From: Candidatus Proelusimicrobium volucris
Lineage (GTDB): Bacteria > Elusimicrobiota > Elusimicrobia > Elusimicrobiales > Elusimicrobiaceae
Reading direction: 5' to 3'
DNA: 64,000 nucleotides
Assembly: GCA_944324665.1 (NCBI GenBank)
Contig: CALUXD010000002.1
Location: 416,694 to 480,693, forward strand
Shown: piece by piece, positions 50,345-60,398 of the stretch
How the letters are laid out: every line of letters starts with the position of its first letter
How positions within the stretch are numbered: the first letter of the stretch is position 1
Translations under genes and position numbers: made by a program
Notes under the pieces: generated by a model
The model's database searches: none
What the model was told of the DNA's origin: nothing
What the model saw: the letters and a program-made list of their open reading frames with translations, nothing else

Positions 50345-51685
50345 TTACAAAGCTATATCAACCTTTTTAGAGGGTTCCTCTTTTTTAGGTTCCTCATTTT
50401 GCATGAAGAAGGCCAATCCGAAGGTGATTACCCCTATCCTGCCAACAAACATCGCGAATATCAGCACCAGTTTCCCAAATGAGGTCAAATGTTCCGTAAG
50501 ACCCACGCTAAGCCCCGCCGTGCTTAATGCGGCCAAACTGTCAAAAAGTATTTCCGACATTGGTGCATTCTCGCTTATCGTAAGCAAAATCACAACCAAA
50601 TACAGGACTATCATATAAAATATCAGTGTGGAAGAGGCGATGAAGACTTTATCCATAGATATGTCTTTATCGTCCAGACGTACATTTTTACGCCCTTTAA
50701 GACGGCTTACCAATACCGCAAACAAAATTACGGCCGTAGTCGTTTTGATACCGCCCGCCGTACCAGCCGGCGCACCGCCTATAAACATAAGCAGCATCAG
50801 CGCGGATAATGCCGTCATCGAAGATACCGATAAATCTATATTGTTATAGCCCGTGGTCGTCATGGCGTTTATCGCCTGGGCAAACGCGCCGTATACCCTG
50901 GTAGAAAAGTCATAATTCTTTAACGAGGGTTCAAAAATTACCAACATTATCCCGCCAAACATTATCAAAGCTAAGAATGAGAAGAATATTGAACGCGAAG
51001 TATATGATATCTTTTTGGCTTTGCCCATCATATTTTCCGCTATTTCCGTTATGGGGATAAACCCGAAAGCGCCCAAAAGCGAAAGTATGGAAGTCAATTC
51101 CGTAACAAAGGGGACTTTAAGAAAGCTTGACATACTGTCCGGATACAAGGTAAGGCCGGCCGTACAAAAAGCCGATACCGCATGGAAAATACCGCTCCAT
51201 AACGACTCAAAAAAACCGCCCCCGCTGAAGTAAAACGCCAAAAACAGGAATAATGCGCCGAAACCTTCGGCAAAAATGGTAAAAAAGATAATGGATTTTA
51301 TGAAAAGACTTAAATCAAACCCCTGCGGGACGGAAAACTCCGCCCTCATTACTTCCTGTCTAGCGCGAGGCAGAGTAGAGTGCCCCTGTAAAAATAGAAA
51401 AGAGCTGAAGCTCATGTAGCCAAAACCGCTAAACTGCATTAACAAAACTATAATAAACTGGCCTAAAAAAGTATAGGAGGCCCCTGTCGGGACCGTCGCC
51501 AAACCCGTGGTGGAAGCGGCGGAAGCCGACGTAAATAAATTGTCTATGAAGCTTATCGGCGTTTTTTGACATAACGGAAGGCTTAAAAAAACTACCCCCA
51601 TCAACATATATAGCAAAAATATTATTACCAGCTTCTGCTGGGGCAACAATATCCTATAGTGCCGCAATATTTTTTCAATCAGCAT
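50345..51685 (-). CDS. TrkH/KtrB-family potassium uptake channel subunit
   Basis: A 446-residue ion-conducting subunit of TrkH/KtrB with four M1-P-M2 repeats. Selectivity-filter regions include ASAASTTGLATVPT (first), FHAVSAFCTAGLTLYPDS (second), NAMTTTGYNNIDLS (third) and DSLAALSTAGLSVGLTE (fourth), each with the pore glycine. The fold requires a cytoplasmic RCK/TrkA partner, which is not seen in the window. The C-terminal tail is lysine/glutamate-rich. Its start overlaps the stop region of the upstream MFS gene by 11 bases, so it is co-transcribed. Confidence 0.93.
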   Translation of the reverse strand: MLIEKILRHYRILLPQQKLVIIFLLYMLMGVVFLSLPLCQKTPISFIDNLFTSASAASTTGLATVPTGASYTFLGQFIIVLLMQFSGFGYMSFSSFLFLQGHSTLPRARQEVMRAEFSVPQGFDLSLFIKSIIFFTIFAEGFGALFLFLAFYFSGGGFFESLWSGIFHAVSAFCTAGLTLYPDSMSSFLKVPFVTELTSILSLLGAFGFIPITEIAENMMGKAKKISYTSRSIFFSFLALIMFGGIMLVIFEPSLKNYDFSTRVYGAFAQAINAMTTTGYNNIDLSVSSMTALSALMLLMFIGGAPAGTAGGIKTTTAVILFAVLVSRLKGRKNVRLDDKDISMDKVFIASSTLIFYMIVLYLVVILLTISENAPMSEILFDSLAALSTAGLSVGLTEHLTSFGKLVLIFAMFVGRIGVITFGLAFFMQNEEPKKEEPSKKVDIAL

Positions 51686-52868
51686 ATTTTTCCGTAAAAA
51701 CAGTTCTCTTTAACACTTTTATATACAAAATTATACCAATTATCAAAGCCGCCGTTAGCATAAAAGAAAAAGCGCTTATCCCCGTTTTGGACAATAGCGC
51801 ACCCTCAAGCCACGATATTACAGCCAAAGATCCCCACGATACCAAAGTTACCGTACTGCCTATTACCGTACGGTCCTGCGCGTTTTTAAAGATGTCGGGT
51901 ATAAATATCAGCAGGAGCATATTGTATATTCTGTCAGTCATCGCGAAAAGCCCTATCATAAACACCGCCCACCATACCGGCAATATCCCCCATATAAACA
52001 ATACGAAGAACAAACTGTTGCCCGCGACTGAAACATAAAACAGCTTTTTGGGGCCCGCTTTCATCAAAAAGGGAACTATAAAATTTATAGCCGTTTCACA
52101 TATACCGATAATCATAAGCGGTTTGGCAAGGCCTTCGGTACTGAAGCCGTAACGGTCTATAAACCATATCCCCAGCATACTGTAAAAACCGAAGTAGCAC
52201 AAACGATTGATAAACATCGCGGCAAAAAAAGTCTTTAAAAACGGAGTGCGCAGCATATCGGCATACACCCCCGCGGCAGAAGAAAAATTGAGAGCGACAG
52301 TTTGCTTTTCGTATTTAGGCGAAGCCCAAATGAAAAATATCATCGCCAATACTATCAATATCCCCGCCGCACCGAACGCCGTCTGCCACCCGCAGAAAGA
52401 CGATCCGTACAATACCAGCGGCACGCCCGCCGCTACCGCCATAGGGCGGCTTGCGGTTAGTACGGTTATCATAGGGGTATAGAATTTTTTGTCTATACTC
52501 TCGTAAGCCAGCCACCATAAAACCGTGCTGACAAAGCCCGCCCCCAGCCCGAATATAAAGCGGAATACCAAACCGACGCAGAAATCGCCCGTCCCTATAA
52601 AGCCGCCCAAACCCGCCGCCATCATAGCCGCAGAAGCCGCACTAACGGGCCAAGCCTTATAGCTCCTTATAAAAAAAGGCCCCGTAAACAGGCCAGCCAA
52701 TATCCCCGCCGTACAGGCGGTAATAAACCAAAGCGCTTTTTCCTGATCTACGCCGAAAGCGCTTTTCAATACCTCCACCATCGGCGATATGGCGTGGTCG
52801 ACAGTGCTGAACGCAAACACTATCACGAACGCCGCTATTACCAATGTCCACCCTTTTACAGCTCGCAT
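51675..52868 (-). CDS. MFS transporter
   Basis: A 397-residue major facilitator with 12 hydrophobic helices. The N-terminal half has ITACTAGILAGLFTGPFFIRSYKAWPVSA, and the loop between helices 2 and 3 has FIRSYKA in place of the canonical GRxxDRxGRR; the second half has the usual six helices. I cannot assign a substrate. It lies upstream of trkH, overlapping it by 11 bases, and downstream of a divergent-unrelated methyltransferase gene on the same strand. No clear ribosome-binding site before the ATG. Confidence 0.82.
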   Translation of the reverse strand: MRAVKGWTLVIAAFVIVFAFSTVDHAISPMVEVLKSAFGVDQEKALWFITACTAGILAGLFTGPFFIRSYKAWPVSAASAAMMAAGLGGFIGTGDFCVGLVFRFIFGLGAGFVSTVLWWLAYESIDKKFYTPMITVLTASRPMAVAAGVPLVLYGSSFCGWQTAFGAAGILIVLAMIFFIWASPKYEKQTVALNFSSAAGVYADMLRTPFLKTFFAAMFINRLCYFGFYSMLGIWFIDRYGFSTEGLAKPLMIIGICETAINFIVPFLMKAGPKKLFYVSVAGNSLFFVLFIWGILPVWWAVFMIGLFAMTDRIYNMLLLIFIPDIFKNAQDRTVIGSTVTLVSWGSLAVISWLEGALLSKTGISAFSFMLTAALIIGIILYIKVLKRTVFTEKYAD

Positions 52869-52883
52869 ATCAAGATATTTCCG

Positions 52884-53549
52884 CTATTTCTGGGATATTA
52901 TAGTACACATAAAGCAAGTTATCGTGTTAACCCTCTTTATGTGGAACCGACCGTGTAAAAGGCGGTTTATCATCTTTGATAAATCGCAAGGCAGTTCCGC
53001 ATACATAGTGGTAAAGAAAGCGTCTTTAAAACTTTCCCACCTTTCCCCGTAATATTCGGCGGCTTCGGCCTCTATAAGAGGACGGAACTCGTCTTTAAGC
53101 CTAAACTCGAAGGAAGTTATCATATCTTCCACTATAAAAAGGCCTCCGGGCTTGAGCCACTTGAACACTTTATCTATCATAATGCTTTTTTCGTGATTGG
53201 TGAGATGGTGTATCGCCTTGCGCATGGATACTTTGGTAAAACTCTCCGCGGGGAAATCTACCTCCTGCAAAGTCGCGCGCACAAGCTCGGCGTTGGGGAA
53301 ATCCGCCAAAGCAGCTTTGGCCCTGGCGAGCTGTTCATCAGATATGTCAACGCCGCAAACTTTGCCGCAAAGCGGCGCGGCTATCTTTAACAATGTGGCG
53401 TCGCCGCAGCCCAAATCCAGCAAACTGTCTTCCTTATTGAAAGCGAACAATTTGGCGTATTCGTACAAATCGGCGGAGTTCTTCATATTCTTGTTGTACC
53501 ACTCCGGCAAAGCCGAGTTTTGCCAGTTGGTGATTGTTCCGTCATTCAT
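52884..53549 (-). CDS. Class I SAM-dependent methyltransferase
   Basis: A 221-residue methyltransferase with Rossmann fold. Motif I is LLDLGCGDATLL (about residues 40-51), followed by VCGVDISDEQLARAKAAL, motif II ELVRATLQEVDFP, the RKAIHHL motif and PGGLFIVEDM. The C-terminal part (LSKMINRLLHGRFHIKRVNTIT) is a lid. The pattern is of the UbiE/methyltransferase-25 group, with an unknown small-molecule substrate. AGAGG precedes the start. The MFS and TrkH genes follow 16 bases after its stop, suggesting co-transcription, and the radical SAM gene diverges from it. Confidence 0.88.
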   Translation of the reverse strand: MNDGTITNWQNSALPEWYNKNMKNSADLYEYAKLFAFNKEDSLLDLGCGDATLLKIAAPLCGKVCGVDISDEQLARAKAALADFPNAELVRATLQEVDFPAESFTKVSMRKAIHHLTNHEKSIMIDKVFKWLKPGGLFIVEDMITSFEFRLKDEFRPLIEAEAAEYYGERWESFKDAFFTTMYAELPCDLSKMINRLLHGRFHIKRVNTITCFMCTIISQK

Positions 53550-53692
53550 AATAAACCTCTGTAATCGTCAAATATCGGGGATTTTTATATTATACTATCT
53601 TTCCCGCCTGTTAATAAACGCCAAACTATTAACATATTGCCCAATGTTTTACTATAATTTATATTTAGGTTAAGAAGCATAAGGATAATTAT

Positions 53693-54646
53693 ATGGAAAA
53701 CAAAAAAACTTTTTTCGTTCCGGGTTGCCTGGGAACCTGCTGGTACGGCAAATATCATTACCTCGAACCTTTTACGGGCTGCGAGCATAATTGCACATAC
53801 TGCTACGGCAAGGGAAGAAGCGACGTCTTGAATATATTAAAAGAACTTAAAAACGACTTTGATAAACCCGAAATCGGTTGTTCGCAGCAAGAAGCTCTGC
53901 GTCAAATCAAGGCCGAAATCGACGCCGATGCAAATATCCATACGATAAAACTTTCCAGATATACCGATATTTTCAGCAAAAAGTTTGTCGATAACGGATA
54001 CTCCTACGCAGTGCTTAAACTGCTGGCGGAACATCCGCAGATAAAAAGAATAATAATAACGACAAAAGGCGTCCCGAATGAAGAAATTATGGGGCTTATA
54101 AGGAAGTATCCTCAAAAATTCTCCTATAACGCGGCCGTAAAGCCGGAGGCGGAAATATGTATGGAAAACAATGTCCCCCCGCGCGAAGAACGCCTAAACT
54201 GGGCACTGAAAGCCAAAGAAGCCGGCGCTCTTACAACCATACATATGGACCCGCTTATCCCCGGAGTTGAGGACAAGCCCGAAGTCGTGGAACCTTTTAT
54301 CGCTCATCTTAAGCAGATCGGCCTGGACAGGGTTATGTTTTCCTACCTGCTTTACGATTACACCATAGCAAAGAATATTACCGAGCAGTTTGGGGAGCAG
54401 TTTTTCCTTACTCTTAAGGAAAAATATTTGGACGATAACCGGCAAATTCTGCCCAAGCAGTCGGAAACCACCTACTACGCCCTAAAGCACGAAGTAAAAC
54501 TTGAAAGCGTAAAGAATATCACCGCCATATTGAAAAAATACGATATGCAATTTGTGATATGCGGTTTGAAATCTTCGGAAAAGGACGACATTTTATCCAT
54601 AAAGGCGTGCGGGTGCAATGTCTGCGACGGTAAATTCTATGCCTAA
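53693..54646 (+). CDS. Radical SAM protein, spore photoproduct lyase-like
   Basis: A 317-residue radical SAM enzyme. The cluster motif is CxxxCxxC (Cys30, 34 and 37 in TGCEHNCTYCYG). The layout after it (KLSRYTDIFSKKF, IIITTKGVPNEEIMGLI, LTTIHMDPLIPGVED) is that of the SPL-like COG1533 group, which includes spore photoproduct lyase and Rv2578c-type proteins. The C-terminus has a further CGCNVCDGKFYA cysteine triplet that could bind an auxiliary cluster. Sporulation genes are absent, so a DNA-photoproduct role is not supported. The next gene, an ATP-grasp ligase, overlaps its 3' end by 8 bases, pointing to a joint pathway. AAGGATAATTAT precedes the start. Confidence 0.88.
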   Translation: MENKKTFFVPGCLGTCWYGKYHYLEPFTGCEHNCTYCYGKGRSDVLNILKELKNDFDKPEIGCSQQEALRQIKAEIDADANIHTIKLSRYTDIFSKKFVDNGYSYAVLKLLAEHPQIKRIIITTKGVPNEEIMGLIRKYPQKFSYNAAVKPEAEICMENNVPPREERLNWALKAKEAGALTTIHMDPLIPGVEDKPEVVEPFIAHLKQIGLDRVMFSYLLYDYTIAKNITEQFGEQFFLTLKEKYLDDNRQILPKQSETTYYALKHEVKLESVKNITAILKKYDMQFVICGLKSSEKDDILSIKACGCNVCDGKFYA

Positions 54647-55847
54647 TAAGATCTGGGTTTTAAATATGGACGACTTTATGTTTAAGGATAAGGCTTTTTA
54701 TGCCCTTAAAAAGCACTCCCTTAAATATATCCAAATTTTAAAACCCAACGATATAGCCATAGTATCGCCCCTGGTGGAAAAAGACAAGGATTTTATCGAT
54801 TATACCGCCAGGATAAAAAAGTTTACCAATAAAGAATGGCTGCTAAGCCCTGCCAAGCAGGAAGAAGGAAAAACACTTGTAGAATCGATAGCGCAGGATA
54901 AAGAACTGCTTCAAAAAATAAAAAAGCTATGCAAAAACGATTACGTTATGATCCCCTTGATTTACAGCGACGGTTTTGCCAAGCTGAGCAAAAAAGCATC
55001 AAACAACCTTCTTAACAACGCCATAGCGGTATCTAAGGCCAACGACAAACTGCTGTTCAAAAAACTTTGCAAGAAGTTCGACATACAGACAATTCAGCCC
55101 GCAGTGCAGAGCGAAAAGAACAGAAAGACGAGAATATTAAGATTCCTTAACTTTAACGAAACTTATTTGCTAAGAAGGCCGTTTTCCGCCGGCGGATACG
55201 GTAATACTAAAGGCAAACTCTTTGACCTTCTTAAAAAAATGCGCCAATATCATAAAGAAGGCGATTTTTACATAGAGCCTTTTAAGGAAATATACAAAAC
55301 CTTAGGTACCCTTTGCATGCTTAAGGACGACGGCGTACACTTTGCGGGTATTGATTGCCAAATAGTACATAAAGAAGCGTGGGAAGGCTGTTTTTTCCCC
55401 TTCAAAAAGCTTGATAAAGACATTCTGCAAGAAGTGGAAGACAAAACAATGCAGCTGGCCAGTTATTACTATTCTAAAGGAGTAAGAGGGCAAATCAATT
55501 TTGATTGGGCCATACGCATAAAAAACGGCAAACTGCTCGTACGCGCCTTGGAGTGCAACAGCCGATATAACGGTTTTGGCCTCTGCCTAAGGTTGGCCTC
55601 GGCGCTGGGGATCCCCAAGGAAAAGCTTCACTTTTATCTGGATACAAATATCCCTCTGCCGGCAAAACTCACCACAAAGAAACTTATCTCCCAGATAGAG
55701 AAGATAAATAAATCTCTCAAGTATAATGGCGGGATAATATTAACGTCCTCCATTAAAGAGGGGCGGGCGGGCTTTTGCTTTATGGCCGAAAACGAAAAAG
55801 ACGTTAAAGAATTAAGGAGCAAATTCAAAAAGGCAATATTTGCGTAA
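54639..55847 (+). CDS. ATP-grasp domain protein coupled to the radical SAM gene
   Basis: A 402-residue protein with an ATP-grasp fold. The start is taken as ATG 54639 (MPNKIWVLN), inside the radical SAM stop region; an ATG at 54618 is an alternative. The N-terminal 110 residues are a pre-ATP-grasp Rossmann-like domain. Residues about 130-330 carry the ATP-grasp signature: NDKLLFKKLCKKFDIQT (substrate/ATP contact), YLLRRPFSAGGYG (phosphate loop), FYIEPF with the adenine-binding Glu, and GQINFDWAIR plus LRALECNSRYNGFG with the metal-binding Glu/Asn. This is a carboxylate-amine ligase of unknown substrate. No other biosynthetic gene follows. Confidence 0.84.
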   Translation: MPNKIWVLNMDDFMFKDKAFYALKKHSLKYIQILKPNDIAIVSPLVEKDKDFIDYTARIKKFTNKEWLLSPAKQEEGKTLVESIAQDKELLQKIKKLCKNDYVMIPLIYSDGFAKLSKKASNNLLNNAIAVSKANDKLLFKKLCKKFDIQTIQPAVQSEKNRKTRILRFLNFNETYLLRRPFSAGGYGNTKGKLFDLLKKMRQYHKEGDFYIEPFKEIYKTLGTLCMLKDDGVHFAGIDCQIVHKEAWEGCFFPFKKLDKDILQEVEDKTMQLASYYYSKGVRGQINFDWAIRIKNGKLLVRALECNSRYNGFGLCLRLASALGIPKEKLHFYLDTNIPLPAKLTTKKLISQIEKINKSLKYNGGIILTSSIKEGRAGFCFMAENEKDVKELRSKFKKAIFA

Positions 55848-56750: not shown

Positions 56751-57629
56751 TTATGCTTTCCTCGACGAAGTATCCAATATATCTCTAAAGGCGTCGCCCA
56801 GCAAATTCCAGGCCAGGACAAACAAGAGCAAAGCGCCGCCGGGCACCGCTATCGTGTACCAATAGGCGAAAGGATTGCCGTGCCCGCCAAGTATCCAATT
56901 GCGCGATAAGGCAACCAACTGCCCCCAATCCGCCGTTCCCACCGGAGAGCCCAACCCCAAGAAACTTAAAGAAGCCGCCGTAAGCACTATATAACCTATA
57001 TCGAGGCTTGCCATAATCACTACGGGATAAATGGCGTTAGGCATTATGTGTTTGGCAAAAATCCTCAAAGGACTTGCGCCCAAAGCGCGCGCAGCCAAAA
57101 CAAATTCCCGTTCCTTAACGCTAAGCACTCCCCCGCGCACCAAACGCGCATAAGAAGGCCAGGATACAACCGTCAAGGCTATCATCATATTATCCAAATC
57201 CCGCCCCAGCATAGCCGCTATCACCATAGCCAGCACCATGCTTGGCACCGCAAAGATAATATCTGTCAGGCGCATAAGTATTTCGTCCGTCCAGCCGCCA
57301 GCAAAGCCCGCCGCGCCGCCTATTATTATCCCTATAAGCAGGGCGAAAAACACCACCGTTATCCCCACTTTAAACGCCATACGGCTACCCCATACTATGC
57401 CGTAATACAAATCGTATTGATTTTCCGTAGTGCCGAAATAGTGCTGGGCATTGGGAGCCTGCGGCTCTATGCTGTATCCGCCCTGCGGCATTTGATAAGC
57501 GTCGCGCCCGCTTGAGGGCGCCAATATCGGCGCGAACAAGGCCACAAGCCCGAACAAAACAACTATTATCAAGCCCGCCGCCGCATTCTTGCTGCCCAAT
57601 GCTTTGGATATTATGTCTTTTATGTTCAT
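56751..57629 (-). CDS. oppC: Peptide ABC transporter permease, OppC/DppC-like
   Basis: A 292-residue inner-membrane permease of the BPD_transp_1 family, the last gene of the oppDFBC operon. It has an N-terminal helix, a periplasmic segment with GGYSIEPQAPNAQHYFGT, and the conserved EAA loop ALGASPLRIFAKHIMPNAIYPVV that contacts the ATPases. About six helices. The stop and start of oppB and oppC overlap by four bases (ATGA). With OppB it forms the membrane pore of a di- or oligopeptide importer, but the periplasmic binding protein gene is missing here. Confidence 0.93.
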   Translation of the reverse strand: MNIKDIISKALGSKNAAAGLIIVVLFGLVALFAPILAPSSGRDAYQMPQGGYSIEPQAPNAQHYFGTTENQYDLYYGIVWGSRMAFKVGITVVFFALLIGIIIGGAAGFAGGWTDEILMRLTDIIFAVPSMVLAMVIAAMLGRDLDNMMIALTVVSWPSYARLVRGGVLSVKEREFVLAARALGASPLRIFAKHIMPNAIYPVVIMASLDIGYIVLTAASLSFLGLGSPVGTADWGQLVALSRNWILGGHGNPFAYWYTIAVPGGALLLFVLAWNLLGDAFRDILDTSSRKA

Positions 57630-58651
57630 TTTAGTCTTATCCTGGGGTCTATCGCCGTATACAATATGTCCGCCGCCAAATTGCCCAAAACAAACAGTAC
57701 GGCCACCATAAGCGAAAACCCCATAACCCCCGCTATATCAAGCTGTTGGGCGCATTCCACTCCCCAGCGCCCTATCCCGGGGTAATCAAACACCGTTTCC
57801 ACTATTACCGTACCGCCCAAAAGGCGGATAAACTGTATGCTGGCAAGCGTAACTACGGGTATCATCGCGTTAAGGCCCGCGTGTTCGTAAATCACTTTAA
57901 ATTCACTTAGACCGCGAGCACGAGCACTGCGTACATAATCTTTGTTAAGTTCCTCCAACATTGAGGATCGCATAACCCTCACCATCAGCGCGAAGGACCC
58001 TATACATAAAGTTACCGCCGGCAATACCAGATGTTTCAACACATCGAAAAACACGTAAAAATTAAGATTAAGCAAACTGTCTATCAACAAAAAGCCGGTA
58101 TAGGTCTTAAAATTCGGGCTATGTATTATCATATCGGCGGTAAAGGAATACTCACCCGGCGCGAACCAGCCCAGCTTGCCGTAAAATATCATCAGCAAAA
58201 TAAGCCCCAGCACGAAAATCGGCAGGGAAAACCCCGCCAGCACAAAAAATCTTATCAGATTATCCGTAAAACCGTCTTTATACTTTGCCGATATTATACC
58301 CAGCCACACCCCGAACAATACCACCAATATTATCGCCGCGACCGCCAGTTGGATAGTAGCTGGCAAATAGGCTTTTATGGCGGAAGTTACGGGCATATTC
58401 GCGCTTTCGCTGTACCCCAAATCCCCTTTTACAGCCCCTTTAAGCCAGCGGAAATACTGTACGGGCATAGGATCGTTAAGGCCGTATTTTTCTATTACCT
58501 CTTCCAAAGAATCCATCTGGCGCGGGTCCTGTATATATAAAGAAGCACGCATCTCGGGCGAGAGCCTCTGCGTCAGAAAGAACAGGAAAAACGTTACCCC
58601 CAGCATAACCAGCGGCAGCATTAAAAGTCTTCTTAGTATATACCTAAACAT
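57626..58651 (-). CDS. oppB: Peptide ABC transporter permease, OppB/DppB-like
   Basis: A 341-residue permease with six helices. Family hallmarks are RYILRRLLMLPLVMLGVTFF at the N-terminus, YGLNDPMPVQYFRWL, the EAA loop region SMLEELNKDYVRSARARGLSEFKVIYEHAGLNAMIPVVT, and TVIVETVFDYPGIGRWG near the C-terminus, all typical of OppB/DppB. It begins 18 bases after the oppF stop and overlaps oppC by 4 bases. Paired with oppC it would transport peptides, nickel-like complexes or sugars; peptides are the most likely. Confidence 0.94.
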   Translation of the reverse strand: MFRYILRRLLMLPLVMLGVTFFLFFLTQRLSPEMRASLYIQDPRQMDSLEEVIEKYGLNDPMPVQYFRWLKGAVKGDLGYSESANMPVTSAIKAYLPATIQLAVAAIILVVLFGVWLGIISAKYKDGFTDNLIRFFVLAGFSLPIFVLGLILLMIFYGKLGWFAPGEYSFTADMIIHSPNFKTYTGFLLIDSLLNLNFYVFFDVLKHLVLPAVTLCIGSFALMVRVMRSSMLEELNKDYVRSARARGLSEFKVIYEHAGLNAMIPVVTLASIQFIRLLGGTVIVETVFDYPGIGRWGVECAQQLDIAGVMGFSLMVAVLFVLGNLAADILYTAIDPRIRLK

Positions 58652-58669
58652 TTTTTTATCGTCCTATAT

Positions 58670-59443
58670 TCAGTTAAGAGGCAAAACCGCCTCCAAAAGC
58701 GTTTGGGCCGCCGCGCTTTTTGGCGAAAGCAATACTTCTTCGGTTTTGCCCAGCTCCGCTATTTCGCCTTTATGCATTACGGCCGCTTTGGAACATAAAA
58801 ACTTGCACAGCGCCAAATCGTGCGAGATAAACACCAAACTCAGGCCGTATTCTTCCTTAATATCCGCCAATAAATTTAATATCTGCGCCTGAACGGATAC
58901 GTCAAGCGAAGAAAGCGGTTCGTCGGCTATAATCAGCTTGGGCTTGAGGGCCAAGGCGCGCGCTATCGCTATGCGCTGGCGCTGACCGCCGGAAAATTCG
59001 CTCGGATATTTCCTTAGAGAATTTTCCCCAAGCCCGACTTGGCTTAAAAGTTTCTTCAAATCGCTTTGGCGGTATTTTTCGCCGTGTACGATAAAAGGCT
59101 CGGCCAAAATATCGGATACGGTCATTCTCGGGTTAAGGGAGCTGTACGGATCTTGGAATACGGGCTGGACTTTCCTTCTAAGCGCTTTAAGTTCCCTGCC
59201 TTTTAGGGAAAAGATGTCCTGCCCCTCTATAAAGATTTTGCCGCTGTCGGGCCTTTCCAAAGCCAGCATAAGGCGCGCAAGGGTGCTTTTGCCGCAGCCA
59301 GAAGACCCCAAGAGGCCGAAACTCTCACCGGCGTCAAAGGAAAAATTTATATTTTTTAGTACGGCGATTTTCTCCCCGCCCCCGAACGCTCCGCCGGAAA
59401 CATAACTCTTTGCGATATTTTCCGCCCTTAATAATTCAGCCAT
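58670..59443 (-). CDS. oppF: Peptide ABC transporter ATP-binding protein, OppF-like
   Basis: A 257-residue ABC ATPase. Walker A is GLLGSSGCGKSTLARL, the signature FSGGQRQRIAIARALAL, Walker B PKLIIADEPLSSLDVSVQAQILNLL and the H-loop VFISHD. The C-terminal oligopeptide-binding extension is short compared with typical OppF. It overlaps the oppD stop by 8 bases and is followed by oppB after 18 bases. It would form a heterodimer with OppD on the permease. Confidence 0.94.
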   Translation of the reverse strand: MAELLRAENIAKSYVSGGAFGGGEKIAVLKNINFSFDAGESFGLLGSSGCGKSTLARLMLALERPDSGKIFIEGQDIFSLKGRELKALRRKVQPVFQDPYSSLNPRMTVSDILAEPFIVHGEKYRQSDLKKLLSQVGLGENSLRKYPSEFSGGQRQRIAIARALALKPKLIIADEPLSSLDVSVQAQILNLLADIKEEYGLSLVFISHDLALCKFLCSKAAVMHKGEIAELGKTEEVLLSPKSAAAQTLLEAVLPLN

Positions 59444-60398
59444 TAGACTTACCCTCGTAACGCCAGCATTTTACCAAGCGTCCGCCTTCCAAATTTAATA
59501 TCGGCGGTCTTTCATTTTTGCACCGCTCTTGAGCGTAAGGGCAGCGCTCGGCGAATTTACAGCCCTTAAAATCTTTACCCGCCGCAGGCGGTGCGCCTTC
59601 TATCGTTTTAAGCCTGGCTTTGCTTTGCGAAAGCCGCACCACGGAATTTAGCAAGCCCTCGCTATACGGATGCAAAGGTTTTTTAAACAAATCCTCTTTG
59701 GGACATTCCTCCACCTTTTCGCCCGCGTAAAGCACCAAAACTCTATCGGCTATATTATTGACTATCGCCAAATTGTGCGTAATAAAAATGACTGAAGCGG
59801 AAAACTCTTTTTGCAGTTTCTTTATAAGCTCCAAAATCTGCCTTTGTACGGTTACGTCCAAGGCGGTGGTAGGCTCGTCAGCTATAAGAATATCGGGGTT
59901 AAGGCACAAAGCCAGCGCCGTCATAACCCGCTGGCGCATTCCCCCCGAAAGCTGATGCGGATAAGAATTTAAAAATTTTTCGTCTATACCCACTTTCTTT
60001 AAAAGCGACGCAGCCTTCTCAAGAGCTTCCTTTTTGCTTATTTTAGAGTGTGCACGCAAAGTCTCCGTCAAATGGAAAGCCACCTTAAAAACGGGGTTTA
60101 AAGACATCATCGGGTCTTGAAATATCATACCTATCCCCGCGCCGCGCACATCACGCAATTGGGGCTCGTTCATTTTGACGATGTCCTTATCCTTATAAAT
60201 AATTGAGCCGGAAGTTATTTTCGCCCCGGGCGGCAAAAGGCGGGTAATAGCCAAGCTGTGAATGGTCTTTCCGCAGCCCGATTCCCCCACTACGGCCAAA
60301 ACCTCGCCCTTTTCCAGGCGGTAGCTGAGATTATCAAGAACTTTTATCCGCCCCTGCGGCGTATCGAAACAAACGGAAAGATTATTTATGTTAAGCAC
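59436..60398 (-). CDS. oppD: Peptide ABC transporter ATP-binding protein, OppD-like
   Basis: A 320-residue ABC ATPase, first of the operon. Walker A VVGESGCGKTIHSLAI, signature LSGGMRQRVMTALAL, Walker B PDILIADEPTTALDVTVQRQILELI and H-loop VIFITHN are complete. The C-terminal extension holds the 4Fe-4S-like cysteine motif of OppD/DppD (CKFAERCPYAQERCKNE). The start codon is GTG at 60398, preceded by the extended -10 TGA-TATAAT, whose hexamer starts 11 bases before it, so the mRNA is probably leaderless with a GTG start. The DUF192 gene diverges 51 bases away. No oppA-type gene is in the window. Confidence 0.94.
   Translation of the reverse strand: MLNINNLSVCFDTPQGRIKVLDNLSYRLEKGEVLAVVGESGCGKTIHSLAITRLLPPGAKITSGSIIYKDKDIVKMNEPQLRDVRGAGIGMIFQDPMMSLNPVFKVAFHLTETLRAHSKISKKEALEKAASLLKKVGIDEKFLNSYPHQLSGGMRQRVMTALALCLNPDILIADEPTTALDVTVQRQILELIKKLQKEFSASVIFITHNLAIVNNIADRVLVLYAGEKVEECPKEDLFKKPLHPYSEGLLNSVVRLSQSKARLKTIEGAPPAAGKDFKGCKFAERCPYAQERCKNERPPILNLEGGRLVKCWRYEGKSNG

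What the first reader, a model, noticed from the sequence alone, without database searches (positions are those of the whole stretch)
53693..55847. Radical SAM (SPL-like) and ATP-grasp ligase encoded as an overlapping pair
A COG1533-type radical SAM enzyme with an extra CGCNVC cysteine cluster at its C-terminus overlaps a stand-alone ATP-grasp ligase by 8 bases. The pair has no precursor peptide, transporter or sporulation gene beside it and no obvious match to known pterin, F420 or RiPP pathways. ATP-grasp enzymes join a carboxylate to an amine; a radical SAM partner could activate or modify the product. This is the best candidate in the window for an undescribed two-enzyme pathway.
Basis: partly seen in the sequence, partly recalled or inferred. 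Interest (0 to 1): 0.6.

Follow-up and report, generated by a model that had tools for sequence, protein, structure and literature searches.

The report
Four-gene radical-enzyme and ligase export cassette
Two enzymes noticed side by side in a gut bacterium belong to a conserved four-gene set (methyltransferase, radical enzyme, amide-forming ligase, membrane exporter) found across one bacterial phylum, which probably makes and exports a small molecule nobody has described.

Summary
The pair is real. A SPL-like radical SAM enzyme (53693-54646) overlaps an ATP-grasp ligase (54639-55847) by 8 bp (ATGCCTAA). It is not a two-gene unit and it does have a transporter. In 25 of 341 Elusimicrobiota genomes (11 of 100 genera) the radical SAM gene is always followed by the ligase. 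In 19 of the 25 a class I methyltransferase and an MFS transporter are adjacent as well. One more lies at a contig edge. Five carry the pair alone, and in four of those the methyltransferase and MFS genes sit together elsewhere in the genome. Distant relatives have one tight operon, MT>rSAM>ligase>MFS. The ligase model matches PGM1, a Streptomyces peptide ligase and BesA best (Z 30-33). The radical SAM model matches spore photoproduct lyase (Z 20) but keeps no Cys at the lyase's hydrogen-donor position. The 'CGCNVC cluster' is not conserved; only its last Cys is, in an invariant C-terminal C[D/N]GxFYA. Most likely this is a small-molecule (dipeptide or amide) biosynthesis and export cassette, ancestral in the class and repeatedly lost. 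The product is unknown, and occurrence outside the phylum could not be tested.

The parts
53693..54646 (+). Radical SAM enzyme of spore-photoproduct-lyase fold, 317 aa; CX3CX2C at residues 30-37; invariant C16, C290, C311; invariant C-terminal C[D/N]GxFYA
   Evidence: AF2 pLDDT 88.7; SPL Z 20.3; Pfam Radical_SAM 1.2e-6, just under cut-off
54639..55847 (+). ATP-grasp amide/peptide ligase of PreATP-grasp (PGM1/BesA) type, 402 aa; start codon overlaps the radical SAM stop by 8 bp
   Evidence: AF2 pLDDT 89.8; PGM1 Z 32.6, 8ynd 31.3, BesA 30.2
52884..53549 (-). Class I SAM-dependent methyltransferase, 221 aa; divergent neighbour here, first gene of the same-strand operon in distant relatives
   Evidence: Pfam Methyltransf_25 3.8e-18; conserved adjacency
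51675..52868 (-). MFS transporter, 397 aa; last gene of the operon in distant relatives
   Evidence: Pfam MFS_1 1.8e-17; conserved adjacency and co-occurrence; a relative scores best against drug-efflux MFS models, below their cut-offs
53550..53692 (.). Divergent intergenic region with a promoter-like site for each arm (+: 53629-53658 TTAACA-18-TATAAT, 11/12; -: 53614-53587, 9/12)
   Evidence: consensus match only, 13 sites found against 8.4 expected in the region

Best explanation
The locus is a self-contained four-gene cassette (MT, SPL-like radical SAM, PGM1/BesA-type ATP-grasp ligase, MFS) that makes a small, probably amino-acid-derived amide or dipeptide and exports it. Proposed steps: the ATP-grasp enzyme activates a carboxylate as acyl phosphate and joins it to an amine (inferred from fold and conserved ATP-grasp residues). 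The radical SAM enzyme makes the 5'-deoxyadenosyl radical and carries out an unreactive C-H or bond-rearranging step on the building block or the amide (inferred). The class I methyltransferase caps an N, O or S (inferred). The MFS protein exports the product (inferred from its family and from co-inheritance). Shown here: the four genes form one conserved, co-inherited unit with overlapping or abutting genes in distant relatives, under purifying selection, without a nearby precursor peptide, old in the class and repeatedly lost. The order of the chemical steps and the substrates are unknown.
For: Pair conserved in 25 of 25 genomes, down to about 40% (radical SAM) and 21-29% (ligase) identity. 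MT and MFS adjacent in 19, and in four of the five genomes where they are not beside the pair they sit together elsewhere. MFS and radical SAM families co-occur in 24 genomes with one exception each way out of 341 (p=1.4e-34, phylogeny not corrected). Ligase found in the 25 plus one. Operon versions have 8-bp, 4-bp or 1-bp overlaps. Pairwise distances of the four families correlate 0.88-0.97, consistent with joint inheritance. Ligase nearest to PGM1, 8ynd peptide ligase and BesA by profile and fold. SPL fold for the radical SAM enzyme. A MFS member scores best against efflux models. Low dN/dS.
Against: No substrate or product is known. MFS direction cannot be read from sequence, and the window's own MFS matches no efflux model above cut-off. 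MT is kept alone or apart in six genomes without the radical SAM gene, the ligase in one and the MFS gene in one, so single members may have other uses or be relics. Identity of the ligase to characterised enzymes is only 13-16%, so 'dipeptide' is a fold-level guess.
Confidence: 0.55

Rival explanations
1. Uptake and use: the MFS protein imports a precursor or vitamin-like compound, and the three enzymes convert it into an intracellular cofactor or modified metabolite.
For: MFS direction is unproven; the best PDB profile matches include exchangers such as SLC37A4 (E 1.5e-5) as well as NorA. Patchy distribution in small gut genomes fits scavenging.
Against: Family-level hits of a member are to drug-efflux models. 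Cofactor genes would be expected to be less often lost than seen (present in 25 of 341 genomes).
Confidence: 0.17
2. Envelope or peptidoglycan-related modification: the ligase acts on a cell-wall or lipid-linked amino acid (D-Ala-D-Ala-ligase-like), with MT and radical SAM as tailoring enzymes and MFS as flippase or exporter.
For: ATP-grasp ligases often act in wall synthesis; one member has a weak D-Ala-D-Ala ligase hit (3.5e-5, below cut-off).
Against: Closest folds are PGM1, 8ynd and BesA. No wall gene is conserved next to the cassette.
Confidence: 0.1
3. Protein- or peptide-carried chemistry: the invariant C-terminal tail C[D/N]GxFYA of the radical SAM protein, or an unlinked peptide, is the scaffold on which the ligase works, as in PGM1 (ribosomal core peptide) or PEARL (scaffold peptide) pathways.
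For: The tail ends the protein in all 25 genomes, even in the two where the gene overlap that could constrain the codons is absent. It lies beyond the part that aligns to SPL (ends at residue 292).
Against: A conserved tail is more simply a structural, substrate-lid or metal-binding element. In the other 23 the 8-bp overlap itself constrains the Tyr-Ala codons. No small conserved ORF was found beside the cassette.
Confidence: 0.07
4. Chance or local synteny only: neighbouring genes without a joint function.
For: Radical SAM, MT and MFS are each large superfamilies.
Against: 25 of 25 conservation across class-level distance, overlapping gene order, and MT-MFS found together elsewhere when not beside the pair.
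Confidence: 0.03

Closest known systems
PGM1 / pheganomycin pathway (3wvq, 3wvr; PMC8939145 and Noike et al. 2015 cited there)
   Same: Nearest fold of the ligase (Z 32.6, 388 residues, 3.7 A, 13% id). PMC8939145 says the pheganomycin genes include a radical SAM enzyme and a C-methyltransferase besides PGM1.
   Different: Pheganomycin uses a ribosomal core peptide and several further genes, including an NRPS. Here three enzymes and one MFS gene, no precursor ORF found, and an SPL-fold radical SAM enzyme. Whether the pheganomycin radical SAM enzyme is SPL-like was not tested.
BesA, L-propargylglycine--L-glutamate ligase (8yi6)
   Same: Same ligase class (profile E 6.5e-11; Z 30.2).
   Different: 16% identity; the bes pathway context (halogenase, PLP enzymes; own knowledge) has no SPL-like radical SAM enzyme.
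ATP-grasp peptide ligase from Streptomyces (8ynd, 8ynq)
   Same: Strongest profile match (1e-23) and Z 31.3.
   Different: 15% identity; no published context found in the library searched.
Spore photoproduct lyase (4fhc; B. velezensis SplB, L080)
   Same: Nearest fold of the radical SAM enzyme (Z 20.3, 264 residues, 3.4 A); CX3CX2C.
   Different: 13% identity; no Pfam SPL match. The SPL hydrogen-donor Cys (FEASCTSD in SplB) has Ser/Cys88-Arg89 at the corresponding place (KLSRYTD), not an invariant Cys (alignment by eye and a weak hhalign). Extra C-terminal 25 residues.
Bacilysin-type amino-acid-ligase pathways (BacD + BacE exporter; own knowledge)
   Same: ATP-grasp L-amino acid ligase plus dedicated MFS exporter; a Bacillus L-amino acid ligase appears lower in the fold list (3vot Z 21.9).
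   Different: Different ligase clade; no radical SAM enzyme or MT of this type (own knowledge).

Membership tests
Spore photoproduct lyase (functional family) | Radical SAM core with CX3CX2C and SPL fold | tested here: met
   CEHNCTYC; SPL is the best fold match, Z 20.3 against 15.0 for the next family
Spore photoproduct lyase (functional family) | Conserved hydrogen-donor Cys (C140/C141) | tested here: not met
   SplB FEASCTSDIVG against KLSRYTDIF: Ser or Cys at 88, invariant Arg at 89; no invariant Cys there; the alignment is weak
Spore photoproduct lyase (functional family) | Match to the curated SPL domain model PF20903 | tested here: not met
   Pfam scan gives only Radical_SAM; the genome's PF20903 hit is a different gene, L079
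PreATP-grasp / PGM1-BesA peptide ligases | PreATP-grasp domain (PF18604) in front of an ATP-grasp fold | tested here: met
   7 of 10 members match PF18604, best 6.5e-14, though the window's own protein does not reach it; fold Z 30-33 to the clade, 25.4 to PurK
PreATP-grasp / PGM1-BesA peptide ligases | Intact ATP-grasp residues (Gly-rich loop, D and E-x-N metal ligands) | tested here: met
   Invariant G185 G186 G188, E213, D289, E305, N307, R309; N189 nearly invariant
PreATP-grasp / PGM1-BesA peptide ligases | Forms an amide or peptide bond | not testable with these tools
   Needs enzyme assay
RiPP / graspetide pathway | Precursor peptide gene in the cluster | tested here: not met
   Genes overlap or abut, leaving no room inside; no conserved small ORF within 1.5 kb beyond shadow ORFs of long neighbouring genes; a remote precursor is not excluded
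RiPP / graspetide pathway | SPASM-type maturase or RRE partner | tested here: inconclusive
   No SPASM or RRE domain in Pfam/NCBIfam scans; structural absence not tested
MFS small-molecule exporters (DHA type) | MFS_1 domain | tested here: met
   PF07690 1.8e-17
MFS small-molecule exporters (DHA type) | Efflux direction | not testable with these tools
   Hits of one relative to efflux models are below cut-off; needs transport assay

The most novel reading that the evidence does not exclude
The cassette makes a new class of exported metabolite in which an SPL-fold radical SAM enzyme, used away from DNA repair, does new chemistry tied to its own invariant C-terminal C[D/N]GxFYA tail. The tail could be a cysteine-based acceptor or carrier for the ligase, or together with C16 and C290 an auxiliary metal site.
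Probability: 0.1. Interest if true: 0.82.

Novelty: new variant of a known kind. Interest (0 to 1): 0.5.

Why it matters
Only one activity, DNA photoproduct repair, is well known for the SPL-like radical SAM fold (own knowledge). A conserved operon placing such an enzyme between an amide ligase, a methyltransferase and a transporter makes new SPL-family chemistry directly testable with four small genes. It would also give a natural-product-like pathway to Elusimicrobiota; the searches of the held library found none reported for this phylum. The 13 same-strand operons and the genomes where the pieces were lost or separated give ready-made natural controls.

Tried and rejected
Single-sequence PDB searches with both proteins gave nothing; the radical SAM profile still gave none, and its later hits to haemoglobin chains are noise. 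Plasmids and phages hold no relative of the radical SAM protein, plasmids none of the ligase, and viral contigs none of the radical SAM profile, so a mobile or phage origin has no support; in situ losses beside conserved neighbours argue for vertical inheritance. The M20 hydrolase next to MT in some distant lineages was considered as a fifth member and left out: it stays when the cassette is lost and is not beside the cassette in the window's family. Paper searches for 8ynd, BesA and this gene combination found no describing paper.

Full report
Observation. The two ORFs are present as described. The radical SAM gene runs 53693-54646 (317 aa, GCEHNCTYCY). The ligase starts at ATG 54639 inside the end of the first gene (TTC TAT GCC TAA), an 8-bp overlap, and ends at 55847 (402 aa). 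Pfam sees the first protein only as Radical_SAM just under the cut-off and the second not at all; no NCBIfam model reaches its cut-off for either. Against the 95-97% identical relative G007, dN/dS is 0.029 and 0.024 for the pair and 0.059 for MT and MFS, so all four are maintained genes.

Is the pairing conserved? A first search of 60 related genomes found the radical SAM protein in 11, and in all 11 the ligase follows at once. A profile search of 341 Elusimicrobiota genomes found it in 25, in 11 of 100 genera, again always with the ligase next to it. A separate ligase profile search found the same 25 plus one genome (G018) with a lone ligase. The 8-bp overlap is kept in 23 of 25; two have gaps of 5 and 10 bp.

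The unit is larger than the pair. In the distant relatives (other genera, another family of the order, and two other families of the class) the order is methyltransferase, radical SAM, ligase, MFS on one strand in 13 genomes, with the ligase and MFS genes usually overlapping by 4 bp and MT and radical SAM within -4 to 69 bp. In the window and five near relatives the same MT and MFS genes lie next to the pair but face the other way: MT 52884-53549 and MFS 51675-52868 on the minus strand, with 143 bp between MT and radical SAM. That makes 19 genomes with all four genes adjacent. G232 shows radical SAM-ligase-MFS at a contig edge. Five genomes of one genus (G035, G102, G107, G113, G124) carry the pair alone; in four of these MT and MFS sit together at another place in the genome, and in G124 no good MT or MFS was found. 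Across 341 genomes the MFS family is present in 25, 24 of them with the radical SAM protein (Fisher p=1.4e-34, not corrected for phylogeny). The exceptions are G124 and G009, which has an MFS gene alone.

Gain or loss. The MT profile is found in 29 genomes: 23 of the 25, plus MT genes without the radical SAM gene in G018, G042, G046, G132, G058 and G128. In G042, G046, G132, G058 and G128 the lone MT keeps the M20-hydrolase neighbour that intact cassettes have in L047-L051 (in G128 the hydrolase and MT are both near a contig end); G132 also shares a transporter gene with L047. The three other genes are gone. Together with correlated pairwise distances (0.88-0.97) and no hit in the plasmid, phage and viral collections searched, this fits an old cassette of the class that is repeatedly lost, with MT often last to go. 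I infer vertical descent; no reconciled tree was built.

What the proteins are. The ligase profile finds an ATP-grasp peptide ligase from Streptomyces (8ynd, 1e-23), BesA (8yi6, 6.5e-11) and PGM1 (3wvq, 5e-7) in the PDB. The AF2 model (pLDDT 89.8) aligns best to PGM1 (Z 32.6, 388 residues, 3.7 A), 8ynd (31.3) and BesA (30.2); PurK follows at 25.4. Seven of ten members match the PreATP-grasp domain PF18604. The Gly-rich loop and metal ligands are invariant. The radical SAM model (pLDDT 88.7) aligns best to spore photoproduct lyase (Z 20.3, 264 residues, 3.4 A), well above RlmN (15.0). At the SPL hydrogen-donor position the family has Ser/Cys-Arg rather than a fixed Cys (the alignment is weak), so SPL activity is unlikely. 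The genome has another gene that does match the SPL domain (L079).

The cysteine cluster. CGCNVC occurs in the window, but relatives have HSHVC, SFCPVC, EGEHLC, KRNMIC and so on. What is invariant is C16, C290 and C311, the last in the tail C[D/N]GxFYA, which ends the protein in every genome, including the two without the gene overlap that might constrain the codons. This tail lies beyond the SPL-aligned part. It may be a lid, a metal ligand or a substrate; nothing here decides.

Mechanism. The best reading is a small exported amide or dipeptide: ligase joins, radical SAM modifies, MT methylates, MFS exports. Shown: the unit, its conservation, the predicted folds, the lack of a nearby precursor peptide. 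Inferred: every chemical step and the direction of transport. The nearest described mix is pheganomycin, whose genes include PGM1, a radical SAM enzyme and a C-methyltransferase (PMC8939145), but that pathway uses a ribosomal core peptide and more genes.

Limits. Phyla other than Elusimicrobiota could not be searched. Statistics ignore phylogeny. Many genomes are drafts in many contigs, so missing genes may be assembly gaps.

Noticed in passing
G018 (L082:7706-8932 and L083:6542-7213): A single-contig 1,643,562-bp genome of the same family keeps a lone ligase and a lone, divergent MT at two distant places, without radical SAM or MFS. The size matches what I recall for Elusimicrobium minutum, a cultured species; identity not tested.
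   Followed up: partly
L047-L051 and L022; L084-L088: A PRK13983-type M20 hydrolase lies directly upstream of MT (one gene further in L022) in several genera of another family and one other family of the class, and stays next to MT where the rest of the cassette is lost.
   Followed up: partly
L079 (G000:C1:114012-114851), protein 1201-2502: The same genome encodes a separate SPL-domain (PF20903, 8.1e-28) protein of 433 aa outside the cassette; this phylum is not known to sporulate (own knowledge), so its role is unclear.
   Followed up: no
window 50345-51685: A TrkH-like potassium transporter gene overlaps the end of the MFS gene by 11 bp and is kept next to it in G007 and G017, but was not seen there in the other genera examined.
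   Followed up: no
window 56751-60398: An oligopeptide-type ABC importer (two permeases, two ATPases) lies on the minus strand beyond the ligase gene, with a DksA-like gene between, and is conserved there in G007 and G017; no binding protein was seen beside it.
   Followed up: no
G009:C44 (L076:6602-7981): Lone cassette-type MFS gene in an 88% complete genome without ligase, radical SAM or MT; could be a relic, or protection against a neighbour's product.
   Followed up: partly
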